Below are positions 41,249-44,300 of a DNA stretch of 64,000 bases, one piece after another. Under the pieces are notes generated by a model. That model was not told the DNA's origin, ran no database searches, and worked only from the letters and a program-made list of their open reading frames with translations. Made by a program: the position numbers and the translations under genes. The number at the start of each line of letters is the position of its first letter. Positions within the stretch are counted from its first letter, which is position 1. Source of the DNA: an uncultured Allomuricauda sp. (GTDB taxonomy: Bacteria; Bacteroidota; Bacteroidia; Flavobacteriales; Flavobacteriaceae). Where the stretch lies: positions 310,001 through 374,000 of the forward strand of contig NZ_CANMOO010000001.1 in assembly GCF_947499585.1 (NCBI RefSeq). Direction: 5' to 3'.

Positions 41249-41325
41249 GCAATATCCTTTGTTATGGTTGCACTTATCGTTTAGTATAAGAGTAGTAGCG
41301 GGATTAATATACAACTACTTTTCAG

Positions 41326-41405
41326 ATAACAACATACCTAATTAAACGCAAAAACGGTTTGGATTAAAACCCAAACCGCTATTACTTTTATACATTGTTA
41401 TGCAC
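41326..41405 (-). mobile_element. attC-like recombination site at the cassette's 3' end
   Basis: The site lies directly after the last SRPBCC gene. Outer arms ATAACAA (41326-41332) and TTGTTAT (41395-41401) pair perfectly, with a central stem CGGTTTGG (41355) / CCAAACCG (41371). Read on the minus strand it opens GTGCATAAC, which matches the complement of the cassette's beginning GTTAGGCAC in 8 of 9 positions. That circular relation is the hallmark of integron attC sites. The central stem also has a T-run on the minus strand and may act as terminator. Confidence 0.55.
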
Positions 41406-41410
41406 TGGCT

Positions 41411-41893
41411 TTATTTCAACAATTTAACTATATTTTCTACCATTTCTACTCGCGCACTAGTTATAAACCCATCAAATTGCTCTCTGGTCATATTTGGGTT
41501 TTCCATAAATTCATAACTTGATGTCCAAACAATCATTGATTTATTATAGCCTAAATCAACAACTTTTATCGCATTGTTCATGTTTTTAGCCGGTACACCT
41601 TCTATAACTTGATAAGAGTAAGTTCTAGTTTTGTCATCGAATCCTGTTATCTTTTCTTTAAAATAACCTTTTCCGTCAGCAGAAGTACAAACTCTTTCTC
41701 CACCAATACCTTTTGGACCTTTCCATTGTACTTTAGACACAAAAGATGAAAGCTCATCAATATTGTCCATTTTTCGAATTTGCTCCCAAACTTTATCTGC
41801 TGAGCTTTCTATTTCTGTTACTAATGGTGTTTGTGCTTGCAACATTGTAGTTACAGAAATTAATAAGATGAATAGAATTTTTACTTTTTTCAT
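41411..41893 (-). CDS. Exported SRPBCC (START-like) protein
   Basis: The 160-residue protein has a signal peptide (cleavage near MLQAQ) and a polyketide-cyclase/START-like fold: EIESSADKVWEQIRKMDNIDELSSFVSKVQWKG at its start, GGERVCTSADGKGYFKEKITGFDD, and a long C-terminal helix. Such folds hold a hydrophobic ligand. Periplasmic location is unusual for the family. It is 36 bp downstream of the 205-residue SRPBCC gene and has no sigma-type promoter of its own, so it is co-transcribed. Confidence 0.85.
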   Translation of the reverse strand: MKKVKILFILLISVTTMLQAQTPLVTEIESSADKVWEQIRKMDNIDELSSFVSKVQWKGPKGIGGERVCTSADGKGYFKEKITGFDDKTRTYSYQVIEGVPAKNMNNAIKVVDLGYNKSMIVWTSSYEFMENPNMTREQFDGFITSARVEMVENIVKLLK

Positions 41894-41929
41894 TGTCTTG
41901 ATTTTTAGATGTTAATTAAAATTTATTAT

Positions 41930-42547
41930 TTATGTTTTTATTATTGTAGCTTTAGGATACTTCTTCTTTATTTCCTTGTATTTGTCAGTTCCACCAGTAA
42001 CACGTTCACCAGTTTCTATGTAGTGCTTTAGACCTACAAGAGTACCAGATAATTGTTTTTTGAATCCACCTTTTGCAATTATGCCTAAAAATGCTGGTTT
42101 AGTTCTAAATTGAAACTCGTATGAAGCGGTTGAAGTACCATCACCATTATCTTTTACTCTATAAAAAGCTTGAGAATTGTCAAAATTTAAAGGTAGTTTA
42201 GCTCCATCTAGGACTACATTGCGCATTACCATATTCTCATTGTCAATCTCTGCAATACGCTCTTTAGACCATTGTGTTCCTTTTTCATTAAAATTGCACT
42301 TGCGCTCAGCTCCTAATTCGCCTTTTAATGAACCGTTAGTATATTCTGAAGTATAGATATATGGTGAGAAGTTTGATATTTCTCCATAATCTAAAACCAT
42401 TGCTTCCCATACTCGTTCTGCAGGTGCATTAATTTTCATTTCTACTTTTACTGTACGGAACTTTTTTGCCATACTTTGGGCTGAAGCATTCAGACTCATT
42501 ATTGCTAAGACTGTGAATGTTAATATTGATTTCGTTGTGATTTTCAT
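41930..42547 (-). CDS. Exported SRPBCC (START-like) protein
   Basis: The 205-residue protein has a signal peptide (cleavage near NASAQ) and an SRPBCC domain (TVKVEMKINAPAERVWEAMVLDYGEISNFSPYIYTSEYTNG...). The pattern with GAERKCNF and a broad hydrophobic cavity is typical. The ligand is unknown. It is preceded by the motif TTTTGTAACAC-N14-TATCAAAG that also lies before the sigma gene, so transcription by that sigma factor is inferred. Confidence 0.87.
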   Translation of the reverse strand: MKITTKSILTFTVLAIMSLNASAQSMAKKFRTVKVEMKINAPAERVWEAMVLDYGEISNFSPYIYTSEYTNGSLKGELGAERKCNFNEKGTQWSKERIAEIDNENMVMRNVVLDGAKLPLNFDNSQAFYRVKDNGDGTSTASYEFQFRTKPAFLGIIAKGGFKKQLSGTLVGLKHYIETGERVTGGTDKYKEIKKKYPKATIIKT

Positions 42548-42570
42548 AATTTAAAATTTAAGTTCTAGTA

Positions 42571-42603
42571 CTTTGATACAATGCTTGGATAAGTGTTACA
42601 AAA
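42571..42603 (-). promoter_or_regulatory. ECF-type promoter of the 205-residue SRPBCC gene
   Basis: Minus strand TTTTGTAACAC-N14-TATCAAAG, ending 23 bp before the ATG. Same sequence and spacing as the promoters at 43135 and 44118. Confidence 0.7.
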
Positions 42604-42604
42604 C

Positions 42605-43108
42605 CTAAGCAACCTTATTTGATAGTTTTTCAATTTCTTTTGCTTTGTTTTGACTTGGATTTCCTGTTTCAACATAGTATTTCAAGTCATTTGGAATATG
42701 CGCAATTTGTTTTTTTAATTGCATTTTCATCATAGGGTTCATAATACTACCTACTAAACCCTTAGTCTTCACTATTAGATGCATATCCACTTTTGTCCTC
42801 TCTGGGCTTATTGCAGTTAGTTGCCAATTATTAATTGCCGTATCTACAAAAAATGGAAAACCTTCAATGACTTCGTATTCAAGTACGTAATTGCCAGGGT
42901 CAAATTTCCTTATGACTTCCTTAATTTTCCCAGACGGTAGTTCGCAAGACCTATTGTTTGAAGGTGCTCCTTTAATTACTGGTGGGCTAAATGCTTTAGA
43001 ATGATTTAAACCTGAAGCCCATTTGTAAGCATCACCAAATTGATTTCCCAAGACTTCCCAAATAGCTTCAATAGGTTTGTTGATAATAATCTCTTTTTTA
43101 AATTCCAT
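42605..43108 (-). CDS. Cytoplasmic SRPBCC (START-like) protein
   Basis: The 167-residue protein has no signal peptide. It begins MEFKKEIIINKPIEAIWEVLGN, the first strand and helix of the SRPBCC fold, and includes NNRSCELPSGKIKEVIRKFDPG and a C-terminal helix rich in Lys. It is the first of the three SRPBCC genes after the sigma gene and has its own TTTTGTAACAC-N14-CATCAAAA promoter. Together with the two exported paralogues it suggests the same class of hydrophobic ligand is met in both compartments; that is inference. Confidence 0.87.
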   Translation of the reverse strand: MEFKKEIIINKPIEAIWEVLGNQFGDAYKWASGLNHSKAFSPPVIKGAPSNNRSCELPSGKIKEVIRKFDPGNYVLEYEVIEGFPFFVDTAINNWQLTAISPERTKVDMHLIVKTKGLVGSIMNPMMKMQLKKQIAHIPNDLKYYVETGNPSQNKAKEIEKLSNKVA

Positions 43109-43134
43109 TTCAATAAATTATATATGATTTACTG

Positions 43135-43167
43135 TTTTGATGTGAGAATATGGAATGTGTTACAAAA
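43135..43167 (-). promoter_or_regulatory. ECF-type promoter of the 167-residue SRPBCC gene
   Basis: Minus strand TTTTGTAACAC-N14-CATCAAAA, ending 26 bp before the ATG. It immediately follows the terminator of the sigma gene. Confidence 0.7.
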
Positions 43168-43170
43168 GCA

Positions 43171-43201
43171 AAAAAGTTGCCTCAAAATGAAACAACTTTT
43201 T
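43171..43201 (-). terminator. Terminator of the sigma factor gene
   Basis: AAAAAGTTG and CAACTTTTT form a 9-bp stem with a 13-nt loop, 26 bp after the sigma stop codon. It separates the sigma gene from the first SRPBCC gene, which has its own promoter. Confidence 0.6.
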
Positions 43202-43227
43202 TATATGTAAACCTTAAAAAAATGGGT

Positions 43228-44100
43228 TTATAATCTAAAGTAACTTGATAATTTATCGTTATTTATAAGTTCATTAATAATGGTCTCTTTGTTAAAATCT
43301 TCTTTAACAGGATGCTCTTGAAATAATTTAGTGTAAGTTGTAGTAAAATCGTCTAAAGCTTCTTCGTGATTATTTTCTACAAAATCTTTTACTTTCGTTT
43401 TTGTTTTGATATTGAAGAGCATTTTTTCCTCATCTAAAACGCCCATTTGCTTCAAGGCTTTTGCTTTTTTAGGGCATCTACAAGGGTTTTCTTTATTTAC
43501 TAAGCCACACTTGTTGTTCATATAGTTAAACAAATCTTTACGTGCTCTGTGAAGTTTTATTCTAAAATTTTGTGGACTAACACCAAAGATATCAGCTCCA
43601 AGTGTGTGATCAATACCAAAACTTGCACCTAAAATAAAAATTAGGCGTTGTTCTCTGTTTAAACACATAATCATTCCGCTCATACACCGAACTTGCATCT
43701 CTTTAGATAACTCTTGGTAGCTAATTTCTTCTTCAATACTTAATTCTGGATTAGGAACTTGGTCTAAACGTTCTCCATAATCATCAAAATCTGAAAATTG
43801 TGCTTCGTCTTTTCTTCTTTTAGATTGTAAAAACTCATTAACAACGATACGATAAAGCCAAGTTCTAAATTTACTTTTAAAGTTGAACTGTCCTAATTTG
43901 GTAATGACTTTAATAAGCACTTCTTGAGTTAAATCTTGAGCATCTATAGGATTGTGACACATTCTCCAAGCTACATTATAAATGAAAGGTTGATGAAAGC
44001 TTATAATTTCACTTAAAGATTCTTTGTTGCCATCTATAGCTTGTTTAACAAGATTTTGTTGTTCTGTATCTGAATATGATTTGCTAAAAGGAAACTGCAT
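43228..44100 (-). CDS. ECF sigma factor with Cys-rich C-terminal extension
   Basis: The 290-residue protein has region sigma2 (about 15-95, with DAQDLTQEVLIKVITKLGQF and FRTWLYRIVVNEFLQSKRR) and sigma4 (about 135-195, HTH in GADIFGVSPQNFRIKLHRARKDL). About 95 extra residues follow, opening with C198-x8-C207-x-C209 (CGLVNKENPCRC). No anti-sigma gene is adjacent, so the extension may serve as a built-in sensor of metal or redox state, or a lock. It is preceded by TTTTGTAACAC-N14-TATCAAAA, shared with two SRPBCC genes, suggesting autoregulation. Confidence 0.9.
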   Translation of the reverse strand: MQFPFSKSYSDTEQQNLVKQAIDGNKESLSEIISFHQPFIYNVAWRMCHNPIDAQDLTQEVLIKVITKLGQFNFKSKFRTWLYRIVVNEFLQSKRRKDEAQFSDFDDYGERLDQVPNPELSIEEEISYQELSKEMQVRCMSGMIMCLNREQRLIFILGASFGIDHTLGADIFGVSPQNFRIKLHRARKDLFNYMNNKCGLVNKENPCRCPKKAKALKQMGVLDEEKMLFNIKTKTKVKDFVENNHEEALDDFTTTYTKLFQEHPVKEDFNKETIINELINNDKLSSYFRL

Positions 44101-44117
44101 AATTAAAAGGTTTTATG

Positions 44118-44150
44118 TTTTGATACAGAATAGTTGAAGGTGTTACAAAA
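44118..44150 (-). promoter_or_regulatory. ECF-type promoter of the sigma factor gene
   Basis: Minus strand TTTTGTAACAC-N14-TATCAAAA, ending 17 bp before the ATG and starting 22 bp inside the cassette's GTTAGGC end. Same spacing as the two SRPBCC promoters. Confidence 0.7.
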
Positions 44151-44171
44151 GTTCCTGTTTTTTTAGCTTGT

Positions 44172-44178
44172 GCCTAAC
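44172..44178 (-). mobile_element. GTTAGGC core site at the cassette's 5' end
   Basis: On the minus strand GTTAGGC fits the integron core-site consensus GTTRRRY and is followed by AC, so GTTAGGCAC mirrors GTGCATAAC at the other end of the cassette. Confidence 0.5.
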
Positions 44179-44300
44179 GATAGGCTAAAAATCGTTTCAA
44201 TGATTCTTTAGCAACTGATAAGTGAAGTTCGGGAATTTTATTGTAAAGATCCAGACCAAATTAATGGATGACCCGTATGAATTTAGGAACATGATTCCTT

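What the first reader, a model, noticed from the sequence alone, without database searches (positions are those of the whole stretch)
42571..44150. Three identical-spacing promoter motifs define a self-contained ECF sigma regulon
Upstream of the sigma gene and of two of the three SRPBCC genes, the minus strand reads TTTTGTAACAC, then exactly 14 nt, then YATCAAAR. The first 11 bases are identical in all three and the N14 stretches differ, so this is not a simple duplication. The TGTAAC/ATCAAA pair with 17 bp between fits an ECF -35/-10 promoter. The third SRPBCC gene lacks the motif and lies 36 bp behind the second. I infer that the sigma factor drives its own gene and the SRPBCC genes, with no anti-sigma gene visible.
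Basis: partly seen in the sequence, partly recalled or inferred. Interest (0 to 1): 0.85.

Follow-up and report, generated by a model that had tools for sequence, protein, structure and literature searches.

The report
Mobile cassette carrying its own sigma
A 2,900-base block of bacterial DNA holds a sigma-factor gene, three SRPBCC-family genes and three copies of one predicted promoter motif that occurs nowhere else in the genome, ends in a site resembling an integron attC, and recurs with the same two edges at unrelated places in other genera, so it likely moves as one gene cassette that would switch on its own genes in whatever host receives it.

Summary
In detail: TTTTGTAACAC-N14-YATCAAAR occurs exactly three times in the window and nowhere else in the 3.77-Mb genome; a relaxed form finds the same three. 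Comparison supports an ECF regulon. In 80 related loci plus the window, 119 strict sites precede sigma and neighbour genes in 64 of 81 loci, all with spacing 17. One sigma-4 helix residue tracks one -35 base: I/V with TGTAAC, K/Q with TGTCAC, in 63 of 64 loci (the other is T) and in 23 of 23 held-out I/V/Q rows with a site. The sigma factor has five invariant cysteines and a C-terminal extension; no conserved anti-sigma neighbour was seen.

The larger finding lies outside the given coordinates. The regulon is one 2,900-bp block (41278-44177) with sharp edges shared by other genera: G|TTAGGCAC at one end, an attC-like imperfect palindrome at the other. In several relatives it sits in same-strand attC-like arrays; a different cassette occupies the same site in the closest relative examined. 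It looks like an integron-type gene cassette bringing its own sigma factor and promoters. Transcription, mobility and inducing signal are untested; attC-like sites were found beside sigma in only 15 of 81 loci.

The parts
41278..44177 (-). Gene cassette: the whole regulon as one 2,900-bp unit (minus-strand 5' end at 44177, 3' end at 41278)
   Evidence: DNA homology with L054, L055, L056 and L058 stops at 41281-41329 and 44178-44179, with unrelated flanks; exact ends read from the junctions printed
44172..44178 (-). 5' edge GTTAGGC (R'-like; crossover predicted between G44178 and T44177)
   Evidence: G|TTAGGCA in WIN, L054, L055, L056 and L059, G|TTAAGCA in L058, each after unrelated sequence; not seen in L057 and L060
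44118..44150 (-). Predicted sigma-dependent promoter of the sigma gene
43228..44100 (-). ECF-type sigma factor, 290 aa, with C-terminal Cys extension (C198, C207, C209; C139 and C146 nearer the middle)
   Evidence: Sigma70_r2 62.6 bits, TIGR02937 79.9 bits (cut-off 42.9); five Cys invariant in 81 of 81
43558..43560 (-). Codon of I181, the sigma-4 helix residue that tracks the fourth base of the -35
43135..43167 (-). Predicted promoter of SRPBCC-1
42605..43108 (-). SRPBCC-1, 167 aa, no signal-like N-terminus (predicted cytoplasmic)
   Evidence: PF10604 27.6 bits (cut-off 27.4); model pLDDT 94.9 with START/Bet v 1 matches
42571..42603 (-). Predicted promoter of SRPBCC-2 and SRPBCC-3
41930..42547 (-). 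SRPBCC-2, 205 aa, hydrophobic N-terminus (predicted exported)
   Evidence: PF10604 44.9 bits
41411..41893 (-). SRPBCC-3, 160 aa, hydrophobic N-terminus, no site of its own, 36 bp behind SRPBCC-2
   Evidence: PF10604 50.9 bits
41278..41405 (-). attC-like site: R'' GCATAAC, long imperfect palindrome with an inner hairpin, ends ..TAAACG
41266..41277 (+). Chromosomal flank at the insertion site (GGTTGCACTTAT), shared with relative L208
44179..44206 (+). Chromosomal flank on the other side (GATAGGCTAAAAATCGTTTCAATGATTC), shared with relative L208 but for one base

Best explanation
This is a 2,900-bp block with integron-cassette-like ends that carries an ECF-type sigma factor, three SRPBCC genes and three copies of one promoter-like motif; the sigma factor likely reads that motif to drive its own gene and the SRPBCC genes, and the block likely moves between genomes as one unit. 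Shown by sequence: the motif is confined to this locus; it recurs before the same gene kinds in relatives at a fixed spacing of 17; its -35 base co-varies with sigma residue 181; the block has sharp edges shared with other genera, an attC-like 3' end, and a different cassette at the same site in the closest relative examined. Inferred: the sigma factor is held inactive until its C-terminal extension and five invariant cysteines sense a metal, redox state or reactive compound; once free it starts a positive loop from its own promoter and raises SRPBCC-1 (cytoplasm) and SRPBCC-2/3 (predicted exported), which bind or modify a hydrophobic compound on both sides of the inner membrane and so damp the signal. 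Because the cassette brings sigma factor and promoters together, it would be expressed wherever it lands, without an integron's cassette promoter or a host regulator.
For: Motif uniqueness. Conservation: with up to 1 mismatch at spacing 17, before 47 of 80 sigma genes (0 of 80 at spacings 14-16 and 18-20) and 54 of 106 nearby SRPBCC genes; other ORFs 32 of 867, many of them family genes or first genes of operons with sigma second. 119 strict sites in 64 of 81 loci; 88 distinct spacers among 97 sites. Co-variation: residue 181 is I/V in 49 of 49 loci with TGTAAC and K/Q/T in 15 of 15 with TGTCAC, the highest of all columns; promoters of one locus agree in 72 of 73 pairs, 49.5 expected; TGTCAC lies in four separate places of the tree. 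Held out: V/I with TGTAAC 11 of 11, Q with TGTCAC 12 of 12. Cassette: shared edges; no orthologue in 23 same-genus genomes, best match 45%; attC-like half-sites 48 on the sigma strand, 2 opposite, 1 in shuffles; arrays L270 and L271, 17 sites on one strand, 0 on the other; another cassette with perfectly complementary ends at the same site in L208.
Against: No expression or binding data. 33 of 80 sigma genes lack the site directly upstream. T at residue 181 goes with C once and A once; 19 of 43 held-out rows, all 13 K rows included, show no site. In 27 genomes of relatives, 84 motif places against 6 for the control; 7 of 30 fetched places have no sigma or SRPBCC gene within 1.5 kb, two of these before SnoaL_5 genes. 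attC-like half-sites lie near sigma in only 15 of 81 loci; L057 and L060 lack the edge motif. The window's attC-like site folds moderately better than shuffles (z -2.5), and in 5 of 6 cassettes the bottom strand is no more stable than the top. 0 of 33 genomes reach the IntI cut-off; the window's genome reaches only 80 bits; recombinases beside arrays fall short too. L270 and L271 were chosen because one search had shown hits there. No exact empty site was found. The sigma model is of middling confidence (pTM 0.54); cysteine distances could not be measured.
Confidence: 0.75

Rival explanations
1. The motif is the operator of another regulator, or the promoter of another sigma factor, and the resident sigma factor only happens to lie beside it.
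For: No binding data. The genome holds 20 matches to this sigma factor at E up to 0.001.
Against: The site has the two-block, fixed-spacing form of an ECF promoter, is not palindromic, ends 17-26 bp before start codons, follows this sigma family across relatives, and its -35 base co-varies with a residue of this sigma factor's helix in derivation and held-out sets.
Confidence: 0.08
2. The 2.9-kb island moved by another route (transposon, Xer/dif module, or homologous recombination at short palindromes), and the attC resemblance is superficial.
For: The array-linked recombinases score below the IntI cut-off and also resemble XerA/XerC/XerD. The host genome has only weak matches to the IntI model. 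Bottom-strand folding is not favoured over top.
Against: Complementary ends (GTGCCTAAC and G|TTAGGCAC in L054 and L056, with mismatches in the window), about 115-140-nt imperfect palindromes, same-strand arrays with about one gene between most sites, and a different cassette at the same site.
Confidence: 0.2
3. [quoted passage not shown]
For: No ligand is known. The extension has no Pfam match, and the model is of middling confidence.
Against: Five cysteines invariant in 81 of 81 sequences. No anti-sigma-like recurring neighbour. Cys-bearing extensions act as on-board sensors in CorE and OrbS (PMC8999054 section 3.5, first part; PMC9023288 passages).
Confidence: 0.3

Closest known systems
ECF41 sigma factors (Ecf41 of Bacillus licheniformis and Rhodobacter sphaeroides; PMC3426412, passages read)
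   Same: No anti-sigma gene, a C-terminal extension, neighbours that handle small molecules, a family promoter before both the sigma gene and the neighbour, a single target transcript, a TGTNACA-type -35.
   Different: The ECF41 extension is SnoaL-like (PMC8999054) and its promoter is TGTCACA with -10 CGTC; here there is no SnoaL match, a Cys motif, TGTAACA with -10 ATCAAA, and SRPBCC targets. A separate ECF41-like gene, below the model's cut-off, exists in this genome (L183).
CorE-like (former ECF44, now ECF238) and OrbS sigma factors with cysteine sensors (PMC8999054 section 3.5, first part; PMC9023288 passages)
   Same: Cysteines in a C-terminal extension, further Cys between or within the sigma domains, no anti-sigma factor.
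   Different: Cys spacing here is C-x6-C then C-x8-C-x-C and there is no CXC in the linker; metal response unknown.
Integron gene cassettes, including those with their own promoters (PMC8876359, PMC8618304, PMC2426708, passages read)
   Same: attC-like 3' end, G|TT edge, same-strand arrays, single insertions outside arrays.
   Different: Cassettes usually hold one gene, some two (as in toxin-antitoxin cassettes), read from Pc or a cassette-borne promoter; this one holds four genes including the sigma factor predicted to read its own promoters. The linked recombinase is not a typical IntI.
SRPBCC / START / Bet v 1 ligand-binding fold
   Same: Pfam PF10604 on all three proteins; the SRPBCC-1 model matches PYL2, cytokinin-binding protein and Bet v 1.
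   Different: Ligand unknown; two of the three copies are predicted to be exported.

Membership tests
[quoted passage not shown]
   PF04542 62.6 bits; PF08281 24.4 bits, just under its cut-off of 25.7; TIGR02937 79.9 bits over 42.9; PDB matches are ECF and other sigma factors
ECF41 | SnoaL-like C-terminal domain | tested here: not met
   No SnoaL match in Pfam up to E = 1
ECF41 | TGTCACA -35 with CGTC -10 | tested here: not met
   TGTAACA and ATCAAA; consensus from PMC3426412
ECF41 | no anti-sigma gene; promoter before sigma and neighbour genes | tested here: met
CorE-like / former ECF44 | CXC motif in the sigma2-sigma4 linker | tested here: not met
   C139-x6-C146 instead
CorE-like / former ECF44 | metal-dependent activity | not testable with these tools
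   needs an experiment
Integron gene cassette | attC with complementary R''/R' and G|TTRRRY edge | tested here: met
   9-bp complementary ends in L054 and L056; mismatches in the window, L055, L058 and L059; G|TTAGGCAC edge in the window
Integron gene cassette | found in same-strand cassette arrays | tested here: met
   Met for relatives (L055, L077, L080, L081, L087, L092); the window copy itself stands alone
Integron (platform) | IntI integrase | tested here: not met
   0 of 33 genomes over the TIGR02249 cut-off; array-linked recombinases at 185-211 bits against 265
Integron gene cassette | recombination by the integrase | not testable with these tools
   needs an experiment
SRPBCC (PF10604) | profile match and helix-grip fold | tested here: met
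   27.6, 44.9 and 50.9 bits over 27.4; fold of SRPBCC-1 only

The most novel reading that the evidence does not exclude
Bacteroidota have an overlooked integron-like system whose gene cassettes can be complete transcription circuits: a cassette that carries its own sigma factor plus matching promoters and is therefore expressed independently of position, platform and host, spread across genera, and insulated from related circuits by a one-residue/one-base code (sigma residue 181 and the fourth base of the -35).
Probability: 0.55. Interest if true: 0.88.

Novelty: new variant of a known kind. Interest (0 to 1): 0.78.

Why it matters
Gene cassettes are usually thought to depend on the platform's promoter or on cassette-borne promoters read by the host. 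A cassette with its own sigma factor would solve the expression problem of horizontal transfer in one step, and would explain why the same small regulon can be kept by different hosts. The residue-181/-35 rule makes promoter recognition in this sigma family directly testable and could give orthogonal sigma-promoter pairs for Bacteroidota. The attC-like arrays with a XerA/IntI-like recombinase suggest a cassette system in a phylum where complete integrons were rarely reported (PMC9024848, passages).

Tried and rejected
ECF41 or CorE membership: rejected on defining features (membership table). Chance motif: rejected. A duplicated promoter: rejected, since spacers differ (88 distinct among 97 sites). 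RNA element or tRNA at the locus: none at the thresholds used. A strict attC pattern scan found nothing and a loose one was noisy; a half-site matrix worked better. An exact empty site in the genus was sought in 29 relative loci: 10 show the Gfo/Idh gene within the 1.5-kb flank, 7 of them 11-146 bp from the OmdA-type gene but too diverged to align base by base, and 3 with 856-1075 bp between; one of these 3 (L208) holds another cassette, the other two (L219, L228) show no attC-like half-site at score 10. Literature: searches returned 0 papers; some gave the ECF papers and review used here; one returned 4 papers, none on this by title; 80 and 81 listed integron papers, and none seen in listing or passages describes a cassette with a sigma factor. 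The ECF reclassification paper and a paper on -35 recognition are not held, so the official ECF group number stays unknown.

Full report
1. The observation. The three minus-strand matches to TTTTGTAACAC-N14-YATCAAAR are at the stated places, and with up to 3 mismatches the window holds 4 against 0.35 expected. In the whole genome (3.77 Mb) the same three are the only exact matches; 23 places with up to 3 mismatches compare with 18 for the reversed control. The relaxed family form TGTMACACN{15}ATCNAA gives the same three and no control hit. The sites end 17, 26 and 23 bases before the start codons of sigma, SRPBCC-1 and SRPBCC-2.

2. The genes. [quoted passage not shown] All three neighbours match PF10604, SRPBCC-1 only just over the cut-off. 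A model of SRPBCC-1 (pLDDT 94.9) matches START/Bet v 1 proteins, hormone-binding ones such as PYL2 among them. SRPBCC-2 and -3 have hydrophobic N-termini of the signal-peptide kind, SRPBCC-1 has none; export is a prediction.

3. The family. A protein search found 3,811 proteins at E up to 0.001, the best 120 of which were listed. SRPBCC-like genes lie within 4.5 kb of sigma in 52 of 81 loci, the window included. Other neighbours in relatives are SnoaL_5, CMD-like (below the Pfam cut-off), alpha/beta-hydrolase, esterase, DinB-like and short-chain dehydrogenase genes. None of the recurring clusters looks like an anti-sigma gene (judged from the sequences shown). The family is sparse: 11 of 395 genomes of the phylum (E up to 1e-40), 9 of 395 of the order and 16 of 395 of the class (E up to 1e-60), the window's genome counted each time. 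In 23 same-genus genomes the best match is 45% identical, so this copy has no close orthologue there.

4. The promoter across the family. With at most 1 mismatch, TGTMAC-N17-ATCNAA precedes 47 of 80 sigma genes, and 0 of 80 at any other spacing from 14 to 20; 54 of 106 nearby SRPBCC genes; and 32 of 867 other ORFs (one of the 81 sigma genes was dropped because its upstream stretch is too short). Many of the 32 are SnoaL, CMD-like, dehalogenase-like or dehydrogenase genes of the same clusters, or the first gene of an operon whose second gene is sigma; others look like chance. Strict sites: 119 in 64 of 81 loci, all with spacing 17 although 18 was allowed. Consensus from 97 sites: TTTTGTAACACCT-N10-TGYATCNAA, with 88 distinct spacers. 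In 27 genomes of relatives (two of the 30 loci named are not held) the pattern TGTAACACN{15}ATCNAA occurs 84 times against 6 for the reversed pattern (sums of its columns). Of 30 places fetched, 23 have a sigma or SRPBCC gene within 1.5 kb; two of the other 7 (L139, L165) precede SnoaL_5 genes, and the rest are unexplained.

5. Who reads it. The fourth base of the -35 is A or C. Promoters of one locus agree in 72 of 73 pairs, 49.5 expected from base frequencies. Among all sigma columns, residue 181 separates the two states best: A with I (19) or V (30) in 49 of 49 loci, C with K (8), Q (6) or T (1) in 15 of 15. On the tree the C state lies in four separate places, by my reading; the tool's own count for the TGTCAC/ATC group, 5 changes with at least 4 forced, also counts loci without a site. 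Related loci are not independent. Held-out loci (43 sigma rows; the pattern left the base open): 24 have a site, with V/I and A in 11 of 11, Q and C in 12 of 12, and one T with A; 19 rows have no site (13 K, 4 Q, 1 A, 1 M). L168, L254 and L255 are at least 99% identical to derivation rows and L250 repeats L027; without them the counts are 9 of 9 and 10 of 10. Seven ECF41-like sigma factors, one of them from this genome, carry K or Q there, and 5 of the 7 loci show a TGTCAC-type site, one of these also a TGTTAC; these matches are below the ECF41 model's cut-off, and no control was run for those sites. The own-genome paralogue (41% identical) has V and a TGTAAC site with spacing 18 before a DUF4440-like gene, just below that model's cut-off. 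Residue 181 aligns with the Ser of the VRSR stretch of M. tuberculosis SigE; that this position touches the -35 in E. coli sigma-E is recalled.

6. A possible on-board sensor. C139, C146, C198, C207 and C209 are invariant in 81 of 81 sequences while C48 is not; the same five are invariant in the 85-row alignment. CorE and OrbS use Cys-bearing extensions as sensors (PMC8999054 section 3.5, first part read; PMC9023288 passages). That these cysteines sense anything here is inference.

7. The cassette. DNA similarity between the window and L054 (90%), L055 (88%), L056 (86%, in two pieces, with one gene replaced) and L058 (82%) stops at 44178-44179 and at 41281-41329, with unrelated flanks. On the minus strand the block begins G|TTAGGCA (G|TTAAGCA in L058) and its 3' part begins GTGCCTAAC (GTGCATAAC in the window, GTACCTAAC in L055), followed by a long imperfect palindrome and a final G before unrelated DNA: the layout of an integron gene cassette with attC. 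L059 shows the same edges; L057 and the more distant L060 do not. Folds of the joined ends give z from -2.4 to -7.7 in six cassettes, but the bottom strand is no more stable than the top in 5 of 6. A half-site matrix from 7 sites finds more such sites around the sigma block in relatives: at score 12, 79 against 30 in shuffles, with one in the 64-kb window, at the 3' end of the block. With a matrix of 20 sites at score 16, 48 lie on the sigma strand, 2 on the other and 1 in shuffles; some of the 48 were used to build it. Such sites lie within 420 bp upstream or 3.2 kb downstream of sigma in 15 of 81 loci; for the rest cassette status is not shown. With the 7-site matrix, two regions that gave no seed show 8 and 9 sites on one strand and none on the other, next to a 386-aa and a 355-aa tyrosine recombinase (L270, L271); these regions were chosen because one search had shown pattern hits there. 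The recombinases score 211 and 185 bits with the integron integrase model (cut-off 265) and 219.9 and 202 with the XerA/integron integrase model (cut-off 220), so the platform is called integron-like here.

8. The site in the window. The block lies between a Gfo/Idh gene and an OmdA-type gene. Of 29 relative loci of the genus, 10 show the Gfo/Idh gene within the flank held: 7 at 11-146 bp from the OmdA-type gene, 3 at 856-1075 bp. The closest relative among them, L208 (left flank 95% identical), carries at the same junctions another block with one intact gene; its ends GTTGTACGC and GCGTACAAC are perfectly complementary and the only attC-like half-site of that locus (score 12.7) lies directly behind the gene on the same strand as here. 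The gene resembles one in the L058 region that matches Cupin_2. The window's genome has 5 scattered half-sites, its own included (control 1), and no strong match to the integron integrase model, so this copy may be stranded; insertion at secondary sites leaving a single recombination site is described for integrons (PMC2426708 passage).

9. Judgement. A self-contained ECF regulon is well supported by comparison, and a mobile cassette carrying it is likely. Each half has known relatives (ECF41; integron cassettes with own promoters, PMC8876359 passages); no paper seen joins them. Signal, ligand and activity remain unknown.

Noticed in passing
L270 (1581-2741 and 3365-14571), L271 (1904-2971 and 4233-16763), L272 (1819-3006 and 7475-9492): Integron-like arrays: a XerA/IntI-like recombinase with some 85-105 N-terminal residues outside the match, near 8, 9 and 3 same-strand attC-like half-sites, about one gene between most of them; L271 is from the window's own genus.
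   Followed up: partly
L134:4441-5832 (own genome C6): A second sigma factor of the same Cys family (41% identical), directly behind a secreted-looking DUF4440-like gene, with its own TGTAAC-N18-GTCTAA promoter-like site.
   Followed up: partly
L183 (own genome C2:704675-705496): An ECF41-like sigma factor (below the model's cut-off) with K at the residue-181 position and TGTCAC-type sites nearby.
   Followed up: partly
own genome C1:882930, C1:1197535, C2:862184, C3:151846: Four further attC-like half-sites scattered in the genome, possibly other solitary cassettes (control gave 1).
   Followed up: no
L208, about 680-1330: A different cassette (cupin-like gene, complementary ends) at the same chromosomal site as the sigma cassette of the window.
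   Followed up: yes
L092 genome (G063) C1:261425 and C1:661667: The same sigma-promoter spacer occurs twice 400 kb apart, with an attC-like half-site beside the second, which suggests a second copy of the cassette or of its 5' end.
   Followed up: no
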